Assembly: GCF_024054535.1 (NCBI RefSeq) | Contig: NZ_JAMXLV010000024.1 | Location: 62,001 to 126,000 of the forward strand | Source of the DNA: Thermococcus alcaliphilus | GTDB lineage: Archaea > Methanobacteriota_B > Thermococci > Thermococcales > Thermococcaceae | Reading direction: 5' to 3' | Length of the DNA stretch: 64,000 bases | Shown here: one piece after another, positions 46,373 to 52,226 of the stretch | Numbering within the stretch: the first letter of the stretch is position 1 | Layout of the letters: every line of letters begins with the position of its first letter | Translations under genes and position numbers: made by a program | Notes under the pieces: model-generated | Told to the model about the DNA's origin: nothing | What the model saw: the letters and a program-made list of their open reading frames with translations, nothing else | The model's database searches: none

Positions 46373-47440
46373 CTAATCCTCAATTCCTTTTTCAGTGATC
46401 CTAAACGCCGCTTCTCCTTCAGGTAGATGTGGGGAGTCTATAAGTCTTGCAACCCTCTTTCCAGCCTTTCCTTTCCTTAAATAAACTCTAACAGTGGCGG
46501 AGTGTGCTAAGATATGACCGCCTATTGGTCTTGTTGGATCGCCAAAGAATGCATCGGGTCTCGCTTGAACCTGGTTGGTAACGAATACTGCTATATCGTA
46601 AAGGTTGGCCAAACGATGGAGGTCAGCTAAGTGCTTGGCGAGCTTTTGTTGCCTCTCTGCTAATGTCCCCCTCCCCACGTATTCGGATCTAAAGTGTCCT
46701 GTGAGAGAATCCACGACAAGAAGTTTAACCGGCCTGTCGCTTGCAGCCTTTTGTTTAATGATTTCCTCCGCTTTTTCTACAAGGAGCATTTGATGGTTGG
46801 AGTTAAATGCCCTAGCAACGTAAATGTTCTTTAATACTTCCTCTGGATCCATACCCCTGTTTTCTGCTATTTGCTTTATTCTTTCTGGCCTAAATGTATT
46901 CTCGGTATCAATCCAAATCACACTCCCATTCAAGCCACCCTCTTCTGGGGGCTTTTGGACGAGAACAGCCAATGTATGGGCTAATTGAGTCTTTCCCGAG
47001 CCAAATTCTCCAAATACCTCTGAAATGGCTTGTGTTTCAATTCCACCGCCGAGAAGCTTATCCAAGGACTTGCTTCCGGTAGTAATCTTGCCCACAACAG
47101 CTCTCTTTTTTAAATACTCGTCGGCACGCATAAAGGTCCCGATATTGGCAGCTTCTCTCGCGGCTTGAATGATCTTTAGAGCAGCCCCTTCACTTATTCC
47201 AGCAAGCTCTTTTAGTTCCAAAGGAGATGCAACTGCTATTGCTTCCAAACTATCATAACCTGCCTCCCTAAGCTTTTCAGCAGTTGCAGGTCCAACTCCG
47301 GGGAGATCTTCCAAGCTTCTTATTTCCTTCTTTTTGGTTGCTTCTTTATTTGCTTCAATTGACAATTCTTCAAGATCGTCGAGCTCTTCAAACTCTTCAA
47401 GCTCTTTAATTTCATCCTCAACTTTCTTTTTTCTCGCCAT
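46373..47440 (-). CDS. radA: RadA recombinase
   Basis: About 355 residues from ATG 47440 (GGGTGAT upstream). Charged N-tail, helix-hairpin-helix ([43 protein letters not shown]), polymerisation motif [13 protein letters not shown], Walker [16 protein letters not shown], Walker [13 protein letters not shown]1/L2 region [24 protein letters not shown]. No intein, unlike some relatives. Catalyses strand exchange on single-stranded DNA. Confidence 0.97.
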
Positions 47441-47482
47441 AGTTATCACCCATAAGCATGATTCTACATAGTAGTGGATTCA

Positions 47483-47593: not shown

Positions 47594-47614
47594 TTCCAGT
47601 GGAAATGAAACTCT
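47594..47614 (+). repeat. 21-bp repeat, copy 1 (palindrome TTCCAGTGGAA)
   Basis: Palindromic core at 47594-47604 followed by ATGAAACTCT. It overlaps the stop codon of the channel remnant. Matches the copy at 49605-49625 at all 21 positions on the opposite strand. Confidence 0.7.
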
Positions 47615-47738
47615 ACTTTGCAGACTTGATAACCAACAGCTTTGCACCTTCTGGAATCGGCTCATCAAGAGGTGGCACGAGGTGAATTTCTTCTTTTGCA
47701 TAACCAAGGAGGAACAAACCGTTTCCTCCTGCACCTAT
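47613..47738 (-). pseudogene. 3' remnant of a potassium channel/RCK-like gene
   Basis: Reading leftward from about 47738 the frame gives GAGGNGLFLLGYAKEEIHLVPPLDEPIPEGAKLLVIKSAK and stop (47613-47615). The second half looks like the end of a TrkA-C/RCK domain ('P.....L.EG.KLLVI'). It lies in a different frame inside the tail of tnpB. The matching N-terminal remnant is at 49284-49427. The pore and most of the RCK domain are missing between them, so the locus suffered a deletion as well as an insertion. Confidence 0.6.
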
Positions 47739-49047
47739 TTTGTTGCAGTCCTTGACTAATTATCACTAACGAGTTCTTGTGGTGCAGGAGGTTAGCCTCA
47801 AGAGAGAGCATCACAGGACTCACCGAGTCCTCAACTCTCCCGTCATTGACCTTCGGGCTGAACGGAAACAGCCCCAAAAGGTTTTGAACAGCAACAAAAT
47901 CCCTATCAGCCTTGAAACCACAAATTGGACACTTGAGAACCCTCCGACGCAGAGCGTCGTCATCAGGCTTTACACGAAAAGCACCACAATGCGGACAAAC
48001 CTGAGAAGAATAAAAAGGATTAACGAACACGACAGAAACACCATATTCAACAGCCTTCTCAAAGACAAACCTCTGGAACCCATTCATACTAATATTGTGA
48101 AGTGTATCCCTTAGCCTCTTCTCGTTCTTCCTTCTCTTTCCTGTAATCCTCTGGTTGAAGTTCTTGGGGACAGCCTCAAGGACAATGGTAGTGTTCAACT
48201 CTTTGGCAATTTCAACGAGCCTCTTTGCTAATTTCCTCTGCAAGTCAATCCTCTTGTTCATCTTCCGCCCACCAAACTTCTTGAGGAGTTTCTTACACTT
48301 CCTCGAAGGAGTCTTCCTCTTCCAACCAACCAAGTGAGATTCCTGAATACTTTTCCTCACGCCAGAATAAAACCTAGTCATTCTACCTAAATCCGTCCTA
48401 ACTTGAATCAAAAACTCTTGAGTGCCAAAGGAAACATTATCAGCATTGTAATCTACGCTCAGGAAATTTCCAGTTGGTTTAAGTTCATCAAACTCTTTTT
48501 CGAAGACAAAATACGCAAGAACTTTCCTCTCTTTCTCAACAACACGGAGTTTAACACCCGGTTTAATCTTCCAACCTTCATTGAGATACTTGAAGAAGAG
48601 TTTGTGCGGTTTTAAGGGAAGTTTTATCCTGCCCCCCTTAGTAGTTAGACCTATGATGAGAATCCTCTTCCCGTCCTTGAGGGCATTGAATTGCGGGAAC
48701 CTCCTGTAATCCCACAGAGTGTCGTCCAGCCAGAGAGAGACCCGTTTGATGACTGGTTTTTCTGTCCTAGTCTTCCCCTTCTTTTTCAGTTCGAGGAAAC
48801 TCTTTGCTCTTGTCACTGCATCCTGACAGACCGTGTAGTAATAGTGGGTTGGAAGATCGTACTCCTCCTTGAGTTTCTCGTAGAAGAGTTTCCTAAGTTT
48901 CAGGTGACTCCTCACTCTGCTCTCGACTGCATACTCGGTTAGGGACTCTAAAATCCTCGAGTATTCAGCATAAACTTCCTTTATTGTCCCAAACTTTTTT
49001 CTCGTGAGTGGGTAACTTTCAAGGACAATTGTTCGGGTTAGTTTCAT
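47665..49047 (-). CDS. tnpB: TnpB family RNA-guided nuclease
   Basis: 460 residues, different subfamily from the first copy. RuvC residues: D199 in SVDYNAD, E291 in VLEAVPKN, D381 in ADRDFVAVQN; zinc finger CPHC 351-354 and CPIC 373-376. About 30 extra residues at the C-terminus (LQQNRCRRKRFVPPWL) come from reading into the interrupted host gene; the natural end is probably near LLHHKNSLV. The ATG overlaps the stop of a 51-codon upstream gene. Catalytic set intact. Confidence 0.93.
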   Translation of the reverse strand: MKLTRTIVLESYPLTRKKFGTIKEVYAEYSRILESLTEYAVESRVRSHLKLRKLFYEKLKEEYDLPTHYYYTVCQDAVTRAKSFLELKKKGKTRTEKPVIKRVSLWLDDTLWDYRRFPQFNALKDGKRILIIGLTTKGGRIKLPLKPHKLFFKYLNEGWKIKPGVKLRVVEKERKVLAYFVFEKEFDELKPTGNFLSVDYNADNVSFGTQEFLIQVRTDLGRMTRFYSGVRKSIQESHLVGWKRKTPSRKCKKLLKKFGGRKMNKRIDLQRKLAKRLVEIAKELNTTIVLEAVPKNFNQRITGKRRKNEKRLRDTLHNISMNGFQRFVFEKAVEYGVSVVFVNPFYSSQVCPHCGAFRVKPDDDALRRRVLKCPICGFKADRDFVAVQNLLGLFPFSPKVNDGRVEDSVSPVMLSLEANLLHHKNSLVIISQGLQQNRCRRKRFVPPWLCKRRNSPRATS

Positions 49048-49283
49048 CCACTCTCAACCTCCCTGAGGAGTTTTTTAAATTCTTGCCTGCGAAGGTAGTT
49101 TACTCTATTCCAGACTTTGGAGCTGGTTAGGATTAACTCTTTGAGGGTTCTTTCTTGCTCTTTTGAGGGCTGGAGTTTTAGGGTTACTGTTCGCTTCATT
49201 TCAAGGTGTGGTATGTTTTTTAGGCTTTAAAATAGTTTTGCTTTCCTGTTTTCAGGCTAATTTTCAATTACTGCATCCCCGCC
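47739..49283 (-). mobile_element. second solo TnpB element, inside the channel gene
   Basis: Boundaries are estimated from where the channel remnants stop: near 47738 and near 49283-49296. No tnpA is present. Contents are a 51-codon gene and tnpB. The left end holds a GC hairpin (49277-49296). Target and ends are uncertain by tens of bases because the middle of the host gene is lost. Confidence 0.6.
49044..49199 (-). CDS. 51-residue TnpB N-terminal-like peptide
   Basis: ATG 49199 to TGA 49044, with TGA overlapping the tnpB ATG as ATGA. The peptide reads MKRTVTLKLQPSKEQ...SKVWNRVNYLRRQEF, the usual N-terminal helix region of TnpB proteins (compare YKFRIYPSKAQQEKML in the first element). tnpB downstream has its own different N-terminus. 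So this is either a leftover of another TnpB or a small coupled partner protein. Confidence 0.6.
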   Translation of the reverse strand: MKRTVTLKLQPSKEQERTLKELILTSSKVWNRVNYLRRQEFKKLLREVESG

Positions 49284-49296
49284 CTAAAGGGCGAGG
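49277..49296 (-). repeat. GC hairpin at the left side of the second TnpB element
   Basis: CCCCGCCC, TAAA, GGGCGAGG: an 8-bp stem with one mismatch, nearly the same as the right-end hairpin of the first element. Here it lies on the 5' side of tnpB, next to the channel remnant. It may belong to an older, lost neighbour element. Confidence 0.5.
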
Positions 49297-49427
49297 CTTT
49301 CAAAAGAAAAAAATAAGGCCAAGATTATCGCAAGCAAAACCACAGCTAAGGCAAGAGCGAATATTTTGCTCCTTTTTAGCTTTATCCTTATCTTCAAAAG
49401 CCTTCTAACTAACGGAACGGGTATCAT
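49284..49427 (-). pseudogene. 5' remnant of a potassium channel-like gene
   Basis: ATG 49427 starts MIPVPLVRRLLKIRIKLKRS, then one hydrophobic helix (IFALALAVVLLAIILALFFSF), then the frame enters the element hairpin and stops at 49284. A short basic leader followed by the first membrane helix is how two-helix archaeal K+ channels with an RCK domain begin. The 3' remnant at 47613-47738 fits the end of such a protein. Confidence 0.55.
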
Positions 49428-49467
49428 TGCATTAGAAGTTAAGGTCTAACCTTAAAAAGCTTCACTT

Positions 49468-49488
49468 TTCCAGTGGAAATAAAACACC
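49468..49488 (+). repeat. 21-bp repeat, copy 2
   Basis: Exact palindrome core TTCCAGTGGAA, flank ATAAAACACC; 18 of 21 match the consensus. 68 bp from copy 3 in the same direction. Confidence 0.65.
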
Positions 49489-49535
49489 ACAATTTTGGAT
49501 AATAACGATTGAGTTAATACATCAATGTTCAAAAG

Positions 49536-49556
49536 TTCCAGTGGAAATAAAGCTCT
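49536..49556 (+). repeat. 21-bp repeat, copy 3
   Basis: Exact core TTCCAGTGGAA with flank ATAAAGCTCT; 19 of 21 match the consensus. Confidence 0.7.
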
Positions 49557-49604
49557 TTTTCCATGCCCATCTAAGCGTTCATAAAATTATCTAACAAACC
49601 CCTC

Positions 49605-49625
49605 AGAGTTTCATTTCCACTGGAA
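49605..49625 (-). repeat. 21-bp repeat, copy 4, inverted
   Basis: Exact 21-bp match to copy 1 on the opposite strand; centre at 49620. Confidence 0.7.
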
Positions 49626-49877
49626 CCTTGTTTTGAAAAATGGACGGATTTTGCGAATGAAGAAAATGCAAAAAGCATTTAAAAAGGCATTTAGCATTTA
49701 CAAATATTAATTTGTTCACGATGCTTAAATGATAAACGAAGGATAGTTATTATCTTTACCATTTATTTATGTCATATTTGAACAATGTTCATAGATAAGT
49801 ATATATGTCCAAAAACACAGAAATAATGGGAGTGTTTACACCAATTTAATAACAAAGGAGTTGGTGTTTTGCGCCGC

Positions 49878-49898
49878 TTCCACAGGAAATACAACTCT
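49878..49898 (+). repeat. 21-bp repeat, copy 5, diverged
   Basis: TTCCACAGGAA core with flank ATACAACTCT; 17 of 21 match. Located at the start of the frame open from 49869. Confidence 0.5.
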
Positions 49899-50099
49899 GG
49901 GGGGCTAAGCTACTGTTTAACAATTAACTTTTTGGTAAACATTTTCGTTGAATCCGATGTATATCTAAGACCATCACTGTTCTTATTTTGGAGTACATCT
50001 CTGTTCATTATCTTCTCCATAGGAAACAAGAAATGGATTGCTCAGTGTTTGTTAATTGTAAAATTCCCACGTGGCTTTTGTATTCTTCATGGGCATTGC

Positions 50100-50110
50100 T
50101 TCCATTGGAA
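50100..50110. repeat. palindrome TTCCATTGGAA
   Basis: Exact core; flank not conserved. 35 bp before the YbjN-like start. A further near-copy TTCCTGTGGAA is at 50152-50162 inside the gene. Confidence 0.55.
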
Positions 50111-50113
50111 GAG

Positions 50114-50124
50114 TGAGTTTAAAT
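50114..50124 (+). promoter_or_regulatory. TATA box predicting a leaderless start
   Basis: AGTTTAAATAC lies about 26 bp before ATG 50145, so the mRNA may begin at the ATG itself. No ribosome site precedes this ATG. Confidence 0.45.
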
Positions 50125-50144
50125 ACTTCAAAGTTCAACTTCAT

Positions 50145-50753
50145 ATGGTGGTTCCTGTGGAAGTACTCAAATGGTTGGAAGAAGGACATGACAATGCGAG
50201 GGATATAGTGGACCTTCCTTGGAAAGTGACAAAAAAAGCAGAAGGGGTTTATTTGGCAGAATACCCCAAAATCCCCTTTGTTCTCAACATAGTAATAACT
50301 GATGAGTTCGTTCACCTCATAGTTCCTCTCGGATTGGAAACAGTCGCCTTAGAACTGCCGGAGCGCTTGAAAGTTTACCATACCCTCTTGATGCTGAACG
50401 ATAGGCTAAATCTGATAAAGTTCTGCATAACTGGGATGAATGAGGAGATAACCTTGAGGGTTGATTTGGACAGGAAAACTCTTGGAAAAGGGGAATTTAA
50501 CGATGCTCTTACAAGTCTCTTGATAGGTTTGAATCAGGTTATAGCTGCCTTGGGGCTTGAAGAAGAGTTCGCTAGGGCAGTTTTTGAGAGAGTTGCAATG
50601 ATGGTGCTGGAAAGACTTGAAAAGGGTGCCAAAAAAGAAGAAATTCTGAACTTTTTGGTAGTTAAGGTTGGGATGGATCCAAGAGATGCCGAGGAATTCT
50701 TGGAGAAGATAATTGAGACTAAAAGCCCAAAAGAGGATATTGGTTACTTTTAA
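50145..50753 (+). CDS. YbjN/Tir-chaperone-like protein
   Basis: About 202 residues. The middle (KIPFVLNIVITDEFVHLIVPLGLETVALELPERLKVYHTLLMLNDRLNLIKFCITGMNEEITLRVDLDRK) has the alternating pattern of YbjN-like folds (related to type III secretion chaperones), which bind partner proteins. The last 40 residues form a helical tail (KEEILNFLVVKVGMDPRDAEEFLEKI). The start at 50145 is given by the TATA spacing; the frame is open to 49869. Stop abuts the stop of the converging PIN gene (50753/50754). Confidence 0.65.
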   Translation: MVVPVEVLKWLEEGHDNARDIVDLPWKVTKKAEGVYLAEYPKIPFVLNIVITDEFVHLIVPLGLETVALELPERLKVYHTLLMLNDRLNLIKFCITGMNEEITLRVDLDRKTLGKGEFNDALTSLLIGLNQVIAALGLEEEFARAVFERVAMMVLERLEKGAKKEEILNFLVVKVGMDPRDAEEFLEKIIETKSPKEDIGYF

Positions 50754-51752
50754 CTACCTTTCAATTTTTAATTCCATCAGCCTTCTGCACAAGCTCCAGT
50801 GGAAATGAAACTCTTGATGTATGTCCTTCTTAAAGACCAACTTCAATTCGTTTAGCCCAGTTTTTCCCCTAAATTCGCCAAACAAAAGCACGTTGTTCAT
50901 TTCTATAACACCAAAAACTGCCGCCAAATTGAAGATTAGGGTCCTCAGCTGGTAACCGGTTGCGTAGTGTTCGCTTAGCTCTTCGTGGGGATATTCAAAG
51001 AGAAAATATTCAACTCCTTCAATTTTTGCTATGTCAGTCATTGCGATATCTGCCGTTAAGAGAACTACGAGTGCTGGGGTGTTTTTATCGAATTCCTTCA
51101 AGGTCTTTATTATTAGTTCGTCGTTTGTGTTTGCCTTTTCATCAATGCTTTTTACCTCTATTATTTTGTCTTTTATCTTTTCGTATTCTTTTAGGGCTAT
51201 GTATGCAGCTTTCCTTGATTTCTTCATCCTCCTGTTGCTGAATTCTTGGAGCAAATACGAATTGTGGAGAATTTTCCTCAGCTCTTTTAATTGTGCTGGT
51301 TTGTACTTGAAGTTCATTGAGTTTTCTATTTCCTTCTTTACTAAATCTACTATTGCTATCTGGATTCCCTCTACTCCCTTGAGCTTGGATAAAAACGCAT
51401 GGTACAATAGGTTGGTATCCGGGGCAAAGATTATTCTTTTCGTGAGGCTCTTATATGCATTAAGCTTCTCTTGGAACTCATTAATGTTTGCGTAGTTTAC
51501 GATTCCACTGGAAAGGAAGCACTCATAAAAGTCTCTGTATGTGGGAAGATCATATAGATACCTTTCTTTTCCTCGAAGTACTTTATGAAATTCGTCTTCT
51601 TTGGCTAACACTCTTATTTTGTACCCCTCTCTGTAGGGAAACGCCTCTAAAAGCGGAATGTTGTAGAGGGGGCTGCTCACTCTTATTTTGCCTCTCATCT
51701 GGATTAAGTTGATGAGTATCTGAAGTTCAGGCTTCTCTATAATCTTTTCCAT
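50754..51752 (-). CDS. PIN-domain nuclease paired with a CARF-like protein
   Basis: 332 residues. The first ~105 residues are an unrecognised alpha/beta region. Then a PIN domain: D112 in FAPDTN, E141 in KKEIEN, D211 in NDELII, D235 in LTADIAMTDIA, so the acidic site is complete. A ~95-residue C-terminal part follows. The gene overlaps the CARF-like gene by 16 bp, with GGAGGG upstream of its ATG: co-translated. It carries palindrome copies at 50794 (inside codons for HFHW) and 51503. It is not a VapC in length or context. Confidence 0.85.
   Translation of the reverse strand: MEKIIEKPELQILINLIQMRGKIRVSSPLYNIPLLEAFPYREGYKIRVLAKEDEFHKVLRGKERYLYDLPTYRDFYECFLSSGIVNYANINEFQEKLNAYKSLTKRIIFAPDTNLLYHAFLSKLKGVEGIQIAIVDLVKKEIENSMNFKYKPAQLKELRKILHNSYLLQEFSNRRMKKSRKAAYIALKEYEKIKDKIIEVKSIDEKANTNDELIIKTLKEFDKNTPALVVLLTADIAMTDIAKIEGVEYFLFEYPHEELSEHYATGYQLRTLIFNLAAVFGVIEMNNVLLFGEFRGKTGLNELKLVFKKDIHQEFHFHWSLCRRLMELKIER
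50794..50814 (+). repeat. 21-bp repeat, copy 6, inside PIN gene
   Basis: CTCCAGTGGAA core with flank ATGAAACTCT; 20 of 21 match copy 1. On the coding strand it encodes part of the PIN protein C-terminus (residues about 314-320). Confidence 0.65.
51503..51513. repeat. palindrome TTCCACTGGAA inside PIN gene
   Basis: Exact core; falls near codons 80-83 of the PIN protein. Confidence 0.55.
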
Positions 51753-52216
51753 CTTCTGCCCTCCATAAAGTCCTTTAGTTTTTGGATATGCAGAGGGATC
51801 ATCATGTAAGGCCTATTTGCATATTCCAAGTCTCTAAGTGAGAGGTAGAAGAGGTGTTCCACTTCCAGTGGAAGTGCATGGATAGCAGCTCCAGCCACTA
51901 AGGCTTTCCTTCCAGAGGTTATGTCAACAGAAACCTCATACCTTTCTTCTTTCAGCTTTTTGAGGAGTTCTCCTATCTTCTCATCCGCCTCAAGAAAGTT
52001 GTCTTCCTCTATTACCACCCATTCTATCTCCGGAGAAAAGTCGTATTCACTGGAAATTATATTCAGGGCTTCAACGGCTTTGGGAAGTTTTTCAGAATAG
52101 ATATCTTCCAGAAAGATGTAAATCTTGTCCGGCCTATAGCCCTGCATAACCACAGCATAATAGGAGTTTATCATGGCCCACGTTGACCTTCCGAGCATTG
52201 TGATGTATGCCTTCAT
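51737..52216 (-). CDS. CARF-like domain protein
   Basis: About 159 residues from ATG 52216. Pattern of a CARF (CRISPR-associated Rossmann fold) domain: beta-1 turn MLGRS (7-11) followed by a helix, and strand plus turn VDITSGRKALVAGAAIHA (97-114), the place where cyclic oligoadenylate binds ('D-x-T-x-G-x-K'). No effector domain in the same chain. The next gene is a PIN nuclease, so the two may form a split CARF effector. It carries a palindrome at 51863-51873. No cas gene or CRISPR array lies in the window. Ligand binding is inference. Confidence 0.7.
   Translation of the reverse strand: MKAYITMLGRSTWAMINSYYAVVMQGYRPDKIYIFLEDIYSEKLPKAVEALNIISSEYDFSPEIEWVVIEEDNFLEADEKIGELLKKLKEERYEVSVDITSGRKALVAGAAIHALPLEVEHLFYLSLRDLEYANRPYMMIPLHIQKLKDFMEGRRWKRL
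51863..51873. repeat. palindrome TTCCAGTGGAA inside CARF-like gene
   Basis: Exact core; extends to CTTCCAGTGGAAG, a 13-bp palindrome around one base. A weaker relative, TTCACTGGAA, is at 52046-52055. Confidence 0.6.
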
Positions 52217-52226
52217 AGGCTCCACT

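What the first reader, a model, noticed from the sequence alone, without database searches (positions are those of the whole stretch)
47594..52055. Clustered palindrome TTCCANTGGAA and a 21-bp directional repeat around a CARF-PIN locus
Seen by eye: seven exact copies of TTCCANTGGAA (47594, 49468, 49536, 49605, 50100, 51503, 51863) and at least three one- or two-base variants (49878, 50152, 50794) within 4.3 kb. A ten-base-specified site is expected about once per Mb. Six copies extend on one side to ATGAAACTCT, making a directional 21-bp unit with 17-21 matches. Copies lie in intergenic DNA, over a stop codon, and inside the PIN and CARF-like genes. Placement in both coding and non-coding DNA argues against plain promoter operators. 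Options: a protein binding site array, a recognition site for the PIN nuclease, a miniature mobile repeat, or relics of a CRISPR-like array (copies 2 and 3 are 68 bp apart).
Basis: seen in the sequence. Interest (0 to 1): 0.82.

Follow-up and report, generated by a model that had tools for sequence, protein, structure and literature searches.

The report
Archaeal replication origin separated from cdc6
The clustered palindromes are the predicted initiator-protein binding sites of the chromosome's replication origin in a Thermococcus-type archaeon; in this group an ancient rearrangement took the origin away from its initiator gene, and the outlying binding sites then vanished from the old neighbour gene and appeared inside the new neighbours, the CARF and PIN genes.

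Summary
In detail: seven exact TTCCANTGGAA sites and good variants lie in 4.3 kb, against 8 more exact sites in the other ~1.9 Mb. They are not a CARF-PIN device. A 21-column profile built only from origins of other Thermococcaceae genera finds 8 sites here and none of similar strength in the rest of the window. The layout (two divergent full ORBs with G-strings, 263 bp apart, flanking 70% A+T DNA, between radA and ORF4) is that of the Thermococcales oriC, an experimentally mapped origin type. What is unusual: in this genus cdc6 and dp1 lie hundreds of kb away or on another contig. Elsewhere TIP49 abuts PIN and oriC-ORF4 abuts cdc6; here oriC-ORF4 abuts PIN and TIP49 abuts cdc6, which one inversion can explain. 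dp1 carries ORBs in 29 of 30 outgroup loci but 0 of 11 here; PIN/CARF carry none in 19 outgroup loci but do in 11 of 11 here. The strong PIN site coincides with a Leu/Ile-to-Trp change and is the gene's most conserved stretch at third codon positions. So outlying ORBs follow the origin, not the gene. Initiator binding and origin activity were not tested.

The parts
46373..47449 (-). radA (Rad51/RadA recombinase), the ancestral neighbour of oriC
   Evidence: Pfam Rad51 2.8e-95; beside oriC in most other genera
47594..47614 (+). mini-ORB, 37.3 bits, between radA and the K+ channel remnant
47613..49428 (-). remnant of a TrkA-type K+ channel gene (about 47613-47724 and 49313-49428) interrupted by a TnpB element; intact gene in relatives. 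Bounds approximate
   Evidence: relatives' ORFs compared with the window sequence
47665..49047 (-). TnpB of an IS200/IS605-type element
   Evidence: NCBIfam guided_TnpB 3.7e-35; Pfam TNB domain
49468..49488 (+). mini-ORB, 30.7 bits
49536..49556 (+). mini-ORB, 30.2 bits
49599..49625 (-). full ORB with G-string (ACTCTGAGGGG), inner pair, left
   Evidence: 37.3 bits; G000 has one forward and one reverse full-ORB match
49626..49877 (.). candidate DNA unwinding element, 70.2% A+T (window 57.4%)
49878..49904 (+). full ORB with G-string (ACTCTGGGGGG), inner pair, right, divergent to the first, 263 bp away
   Evidence: 23.0 bits
50100..50110 (.). weak palindrome upstream of ORF4; scores 16-23 bits at this place in two relatives
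50145..50753 (+). ORF4, 202 aa, no known family; lies between oriC and cdc6 in other genera
50754..51752 (-). PIN-domain gene, new neighbour of oriC in this genus
   Evidence: Pfam PIN_4 2.9e-7; PADLOC CARF_m1 CARF_PIN 9.9e-17; synteny
50794..50814 (+). strong ORB inside the 3' part of PIN (codons 313-320), 36.2 bits
   Evidence: 31-37 bits in 11 of 11 genomes of the genus; codon test
51503..51523 (+). weaker ORB in PIN, 17.5 bits, present in part of the genus
51737..52225 (-). CARF gene (CARF_m1 family)
   Evidence: PADLOC PDLC01971 4e-77
51853..51873 (-). ORB inside CARF, 22.7 bits
   Evidence: present in most of the genus

Best explanation
The repeats are origin recognition boxes (ORBs and mini-ORBs), the binding sites of the initiator Orc1/Cdc6, and 47594 to about 51873 is the chromosomal origin (oriC) of this archaeon. 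By homology, Orc1/Cdc6 binds the two divergent full ORBs either side of the A+T-rich stretch 49626-49877, melts it and recruits MCM. In the ancestor of this genus an inversion with ends between ORF4 and cdc6 and between TIP49 and PIN took the origin away from cdc6-dp1-dp2 and put it beside PIN-CARF. The outlying ORBs that other genera keep inside dp1 were then lost, and ORBs arose inside PIN and CARF instead. The outlying ORBs are thus part of the origin (extra initiator loading or titration sites) and not regulators of the genes that hold them. Shown: sequence, layout, synteny, distribution, conservation, skew. Inferred: binding, melting, initiation, the single inversion and the purpose of the outlying sites.
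For: Profile from other genera's origins finds 8 sites here, none elsewhere in the window. Divergent full-ORB pair 263 bp apart around 70% A+T DNA, as in relatives. Shared order radA-oriC-ORF4. Marker-frequency peaks of T. barophilus and T. kodakarensis reported at 1,671,000 and 1,712,000 (PMC11005403) agree with cdc6/ORB coordinates in G086 and G024. In complete relative G078 the cluster ranks 13-16 of 185 candidate origins by skew, cdc6 95-111. cdc6 is Orc1-1-like, 6e-117 to 2qby_A. Junctions TIP49|PIN and ORF4|cdc6 in other genera, ORF4|PIN and TIP49|cdc6 in this genus. dp1 ORBs 29/30 outgroup loci, 0/11 here; PIN/CARF ORBs 0/19 outgroup loci, 11/11 here. Leu/Ile to Trp and third-position conservation at the PIN ORB.
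Against: No adjacency to cdc6, the usual mark of archaeal origins. The skew minimum in G078 is about 140 kb wide with the cluster at its edge, and the G077 curve is ragged. Gain in PIN and loss in dp1 are each one event on one branch, and the codon test rests on 4 codons in related genomes. Origins of Thermococcales can be dispensable, so the sites could be partly relict.
Confidence: 0.9

Rival explanations
1. The cluster is a decaying or silent remnant of the ancestral origin; replication in this genus starts at many sites by recombination or near cdc6.
For: T. kodakarensis grows without cdc6 and origin (PMC5663688) and T. barophilus without oriC (PMC11005403). The initiator gene has moved away.
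Against: ORB pair, spacing and G-strings are kept across the genus; new near-perfect ORBs were gained and kept; skew favours the cluster over cdc6.
Confidence: 0.07
2. Transcriptional operators of a regulator that controls PIN, CARF, ORF4 and neighbours.
For: Palindromic sites, some upstream of genes (50100 before ORF4); Cdc6 itself may regulate genes.
Against: Best sites are inside coding sequence or in the A+T-rich flank; outgroup PIN/CARF/TIP49 loci lack sites in PIN and CARF; the profile comes from origins.
Confidence: 0.02
3. A PIN-nuclease target, miniature mobile repeat or CRISPR-like relic tied to CARF-PIN.
For: Clustering near a CARF-PIN pair; copies 2 and 3 are 68 bp apart.
Against: Genus g3 has no close PIN orthologue but has the ORBs. 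Sites sit at matching positions in different genomes and are rare elsewhere. Spacing is irregular, and Rfam finds only a tRNA in the window.
Confidence: 0.01

Closest known systems
Thermococcales oriC (P. abyssi, P. furiosus, T. kodakarensis, T. barophilus)
   Same: ORB sequence, divergent full-ORB pair around A+T-rich DNA, extra mini-ORBs, radA and ORF4 neighbours, outlying ORBs in a coding gene.
   Different: cdc6-dp1-dp2 are not adjacent; outlying ORBs lie in PIN and CARF and not in dp1.
Haloarcula hispanica oriC2 with downstream ORB cluster (titration model, PMC4010727)
   Same: Extra ORBs outside the origin core, proposed to tune initiation by titrating Cdc6.
   Different: The haloarchaeal origin stays linked to its initiator gene; no relocation of outlying sites is described there.
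ORBs inside dp1 of Thermococcales (Matsunaga 2007, cited in PMC2643942)
   Same: Coding-sequence ORBs 1-4 kb from oriC.
   Different: They were read as a possible link between Cdc6 and DP1; here they follow the origin when dp1 is moved away.

Membership tests
Thermococcales oriC (ORB-type archaeal origin) | ORB and mini-ORB repeats | tested here: met
   8 sites by an independent profile
Thermococcales oriC (ORB-type archaeal origin) | A+T-rich unwinding region flanked by full ORBs | tested here: met
   49626-49877, 70.2% A+T, between divergent full ORBs. Melting not tested
Thermococcales oriC (ORB-type archaeal origin) | Orthologous position beside radA and ORF4 | tested here: met
Thermococcales oriC (ORB-type archaeal origin) | Adjacent cdc6/orc1 gene (usual, not mechanistically required) | tested here: not met
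   cdc6 is on contig C21 and far away in all complete genomes of the genus. I therefore call it an orthologous variant, not a canonical oriC
Thermococcales oriC (ORB-type archaeal origin) | Nucleotide-skew inflection | tested here: inconclusive
   G078: at the edge of a broad minimum, much better than cdc6; G077 ragged
Thermococcales oriC (ORB-type archaeal origin) | Orc1/Cdc6 binding and replication initiation in vivo | not testable with these tools
   Only an Orc1-1-like cdc6 gene in the genome is shown
CRISPR array or relic | Regularly spaced repeats with unique spacers, cas genes near | tested here: not met
   Irregular spacing; no Rfam CRISPR family match
CARF-PIN associated element | Repeats travel with the CARF-PIN pair | tested here: not met
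   0 of 19 outgroup PIN/CARF loci have a site of 13 bits or more in either gene

The most novel reading that the evidence does not exclude
A natural experiment on origin anatomy: after an inversion uncoupled oriC from cdc6-dp1-dp2 in one Thermococcus genus, the outlying ORBs were lost from dp1 and arose anew in the genes now beside the origin, overriding a conserved residue of PIN. Outlying coding ORBs would then be a selected part of the archaeal origin whatever gene holds them, and linkage to the initiator gene is dispensable.
Probability: 0.65. Interest if true: 0.72.

Novelty: new variant of a known kind. Interest (0 to 1): 0.6.

Why it matters
Archaeal origins are usually located by their initiator gene. 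In this genus that would put the origin hundreds of kb from where the ORBs lie; at least one deposited genome (G075) begins beside TIP49-cdc6. The case also separates two readings of the ORBs inside dp1: they follow the origin and not the gene. That makes the role of outlying initiator sites testable by simple recoding, in an order where use of oriC varies with growth phase and oriC has proved dispensable.

Tried and rejected
CRISPR relic, PIN target site and mobile repeat: rejected on comparative data. I first considered that the origin might be split, half at radA and half at cdc6: rejected, because near cdc6 there are only palindromes without the full extension and no full ORB. Local GC skew of the 64-kb window is too noisy to place an origin, so half of two complete relatives was fetched instead. 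ORF4 was first read in the wrong frame in a script (query); its hits came from nearly identical DNA, and it was re-identified from proper reading frames. The 2007 ChIP-chip paper is not held, and I could not read the supplements of other papers. Paper searches found nothing on uncoupling of oriC from cdc6 in Thermococcales; the library lacks most subscription journals.

Full report
OBSERVATION. The window holds 16 matches with up to one mismatch against 4.5 expected; no shuffle of 100 reaches 16. The genome of 1.89 Mb in 25 contigs has 15 exact sites, 7 of them in these 4.3 kb.

WHAT THE MOTIF IS. TTCCAGTGGAAATGAAACTCT, followed at two copies by a run of G, looked like the archaeal origin recognition box. 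To test this I built a 21-column profile only from origin loci of other genera of the family (46 distinct sequences) and scanned the window. It found eight sites of 17.5 to 37.3 bits, at 47594, 49468, 49536, 49605-49625, 49878, 50794, 51503 and 51853-51873. Nothing reached 14 bits in the other 57 kb. A search of 94 Thermococcaceae genomes for the full box with G-string gives typically one forward and one reverse match per genome, and in the listed genomes the pair lies near cdc6 and, outside g3, near radA. In the window the pair is 49599-49625 (-) and 49878-49904 (+), divergent, 263 bp apart, with 70.2% A+T between them. The order radA, K+ channel, ORB pair, ORF4 is the same in other genera. 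Published marker-frequency peaks for T. barophilus (1,671,000) and T. kodakarensis (1,712,000) (PMC11005403) agree with cdc6 and ORB coordinates in G086 and G024.

WHERE cdc6 IS. The only cdc6 of this genome is on another contig (C21:189077-190369), followed by dp1 and dp2 and preceded by TIP49. It is Orc1-1-like (6e-117 to 2qby_A). In the window's genus (g1, 13 genomes) radA and PIN are a few kb apart wherever both are found on one contig, and cdc6 is hundreds of kb away in the complete genomes (0.35 Mb in G078, 0.62 Mb in G077) or on another contig. In g2, g4, g5 and g6 radA, oriC and cdc6 are together where contigs allow a judgement; in g3 oriC and cdc6 are together and radA has moved. In g4-g6 the 3' ends of TIP49 and PIN mostly abut or lie close (not in g2); in g1 TIP49 abuts cdc6 and ORF4 abuts PIN. 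Starting from the orientation in G013, one inversion gives exactly the orientation in G077; which orientation the real ancestor had is not known. The genus is one clade (support 95), nested among genera with the other arrangement in a midpoint-rooted tree.

THE OUTLYING ORBs. Other genera carry 1-4 ORBs inside dp1 in 29 of 30 loci (L024 and L158 are the same assembly). In g1 dp1 has none in 11 of 11. At codon level two of the dp1 ORBs of outgroups mostly encode an ISTG-type peptide in a variable, gappy stretch of the protein, and that stretch has no such sequence in g1. Conversely PIN and CARF have no site of 13 bits or more in 19 outgroup loci, while all 11 g1 genomes examined have a PIN site of 31-37 bits and most a weaker CARF site. 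The PIN site reads TTC CAC TGG on the coding strand, Phe-His-Trp. All ten aligned g1 proteins have Trp, all 19 outgroup proteins have Leu or Ile, and the outgroup DNA there scores at most 4.7 bits. Codons 313-319 are the least variable seven-codon window of the gene at third positions; columns with an invariant amino acid and a degenerate codon are identical in 10 of 10 genomes in 4 of 4 cases inside the ORB against 22 of 193 elsewhere. By contrast, palindromes about 115-165 bp upstream of cdc6, often a tandem pair 18 bp apart, occur in many genera and stayed with cdc6 in g1. That would fit autoregulation and serves as an internal contrast.

IS IT THE ORIGIN IN USE? I fetched half of two complete g1 genomes. 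In G078 cumulative GC and GGGT skew have one maximum (0.80-0.88 Mb) and one broad minimum from 1.78 Mb through zero to 0.08 Mb. The ORB cluster (1.784 Mb) is at its edge, rank 13-16 of 185 candidate origins; cdc6 (1.435 Mb) ranks 95-111. In G077 the GGGT curve is ragged; the cluster at 975 kb is nearly as low as the minimum at 1.2 Mb, and cdc6 at 1.594 Mb is well up the slope. This favours the cluster over cdc6 but is not proof. Of the sites of 18 bits or more in the sampled 1.06 Mb of G077, 7 of 8 are in the cluster.

MECHANISM. By homology, Orc1/Cdc6 binds the ORB pair, melts the A+T-rich stretch and recruits MCM. The outlying sites probably add loading or titration capacity; which of the two is open. 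Their gain and loss with the position of the origin argues that they serve the origin. Limits: gain in PIN and loss in dp1 are single events on one branch, and the genomes are related, so the independent evidence is the later conservation within the genus.

LITERATURE. Reviews and the T. barophilus paper describe the Thermococcales oriC as an intergenic ORB region close to radA and cdc6. The dp1 ORBs were reported in 2007 and taken to suggest a link between Cdc6 and DP1 (PMC2643942). I found no report of uncoupling in the T. litoralis/T. sibiricus group, within an open-access library that lacks most subscription journals.

Noticed in passing
47613-49428 (TnpB 47665-49047): An IS200/IS605-type TnpB element sits inside the remnant of a TrkA-type K+ channel gene next to oriC; relatives have the intact gene, a shorter remnant, or only about 84 bp between the flanking ORBs.
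   Followed up: partly
46373-47449 and L120-L128: radA of this genome has no insertion, while in several close relatives (G077, G074, G085, G084, G076) the matches span about 2.5 kb in one frame with a break at the same place, as an intein would give.
   Followed up: no
G000:C21:188930-188970 (upstream of cdc6) and the same place in L130-L159: Palindromes, often in tandem 18 bp apart, recur about 115-185 bp upstream of cdc6 in many genera; they look like an autoregulatory Cdc6 site that stayed with the gene.
   Followed up: partly
G000:C21:187400; L105, L108, L111: A weak ORB-like palindrome recurs upstream of TIP49 in part of g1 and of g5.
   Followed up: no
L010:12985, L016:13043, L018:16784, L011:13065: Several g4-type genomes have another strong ORB some 3 kb (more where genes are inserted) beyond the start of radA, on the far side of the origin, so outlying ORBs may flank oriC on both sides.
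   Followed up: no
50754-52225: The CARF_m1 gene and its PIN partner are widespread: PIN hits in 84 of 94 genomes, with only weak hits or none in g3. Function unknown. In G076 the PIN gene is interrupted.
   Followed up: partly
G075:C1:140-2917 and G002:C1:643-1737: Two deposited genomes start beside cdc6, perhaps on the assumption that it marks the origin; in G075 the ORB cluster is about 0.5 Mb away.
   Followed up: no
G074, G079, G001, G087, G086, G030, G093: Second, divergent cdc6-like genes, possibly from plasmids; G000 has none above the family cut-off.
   Followed up: no
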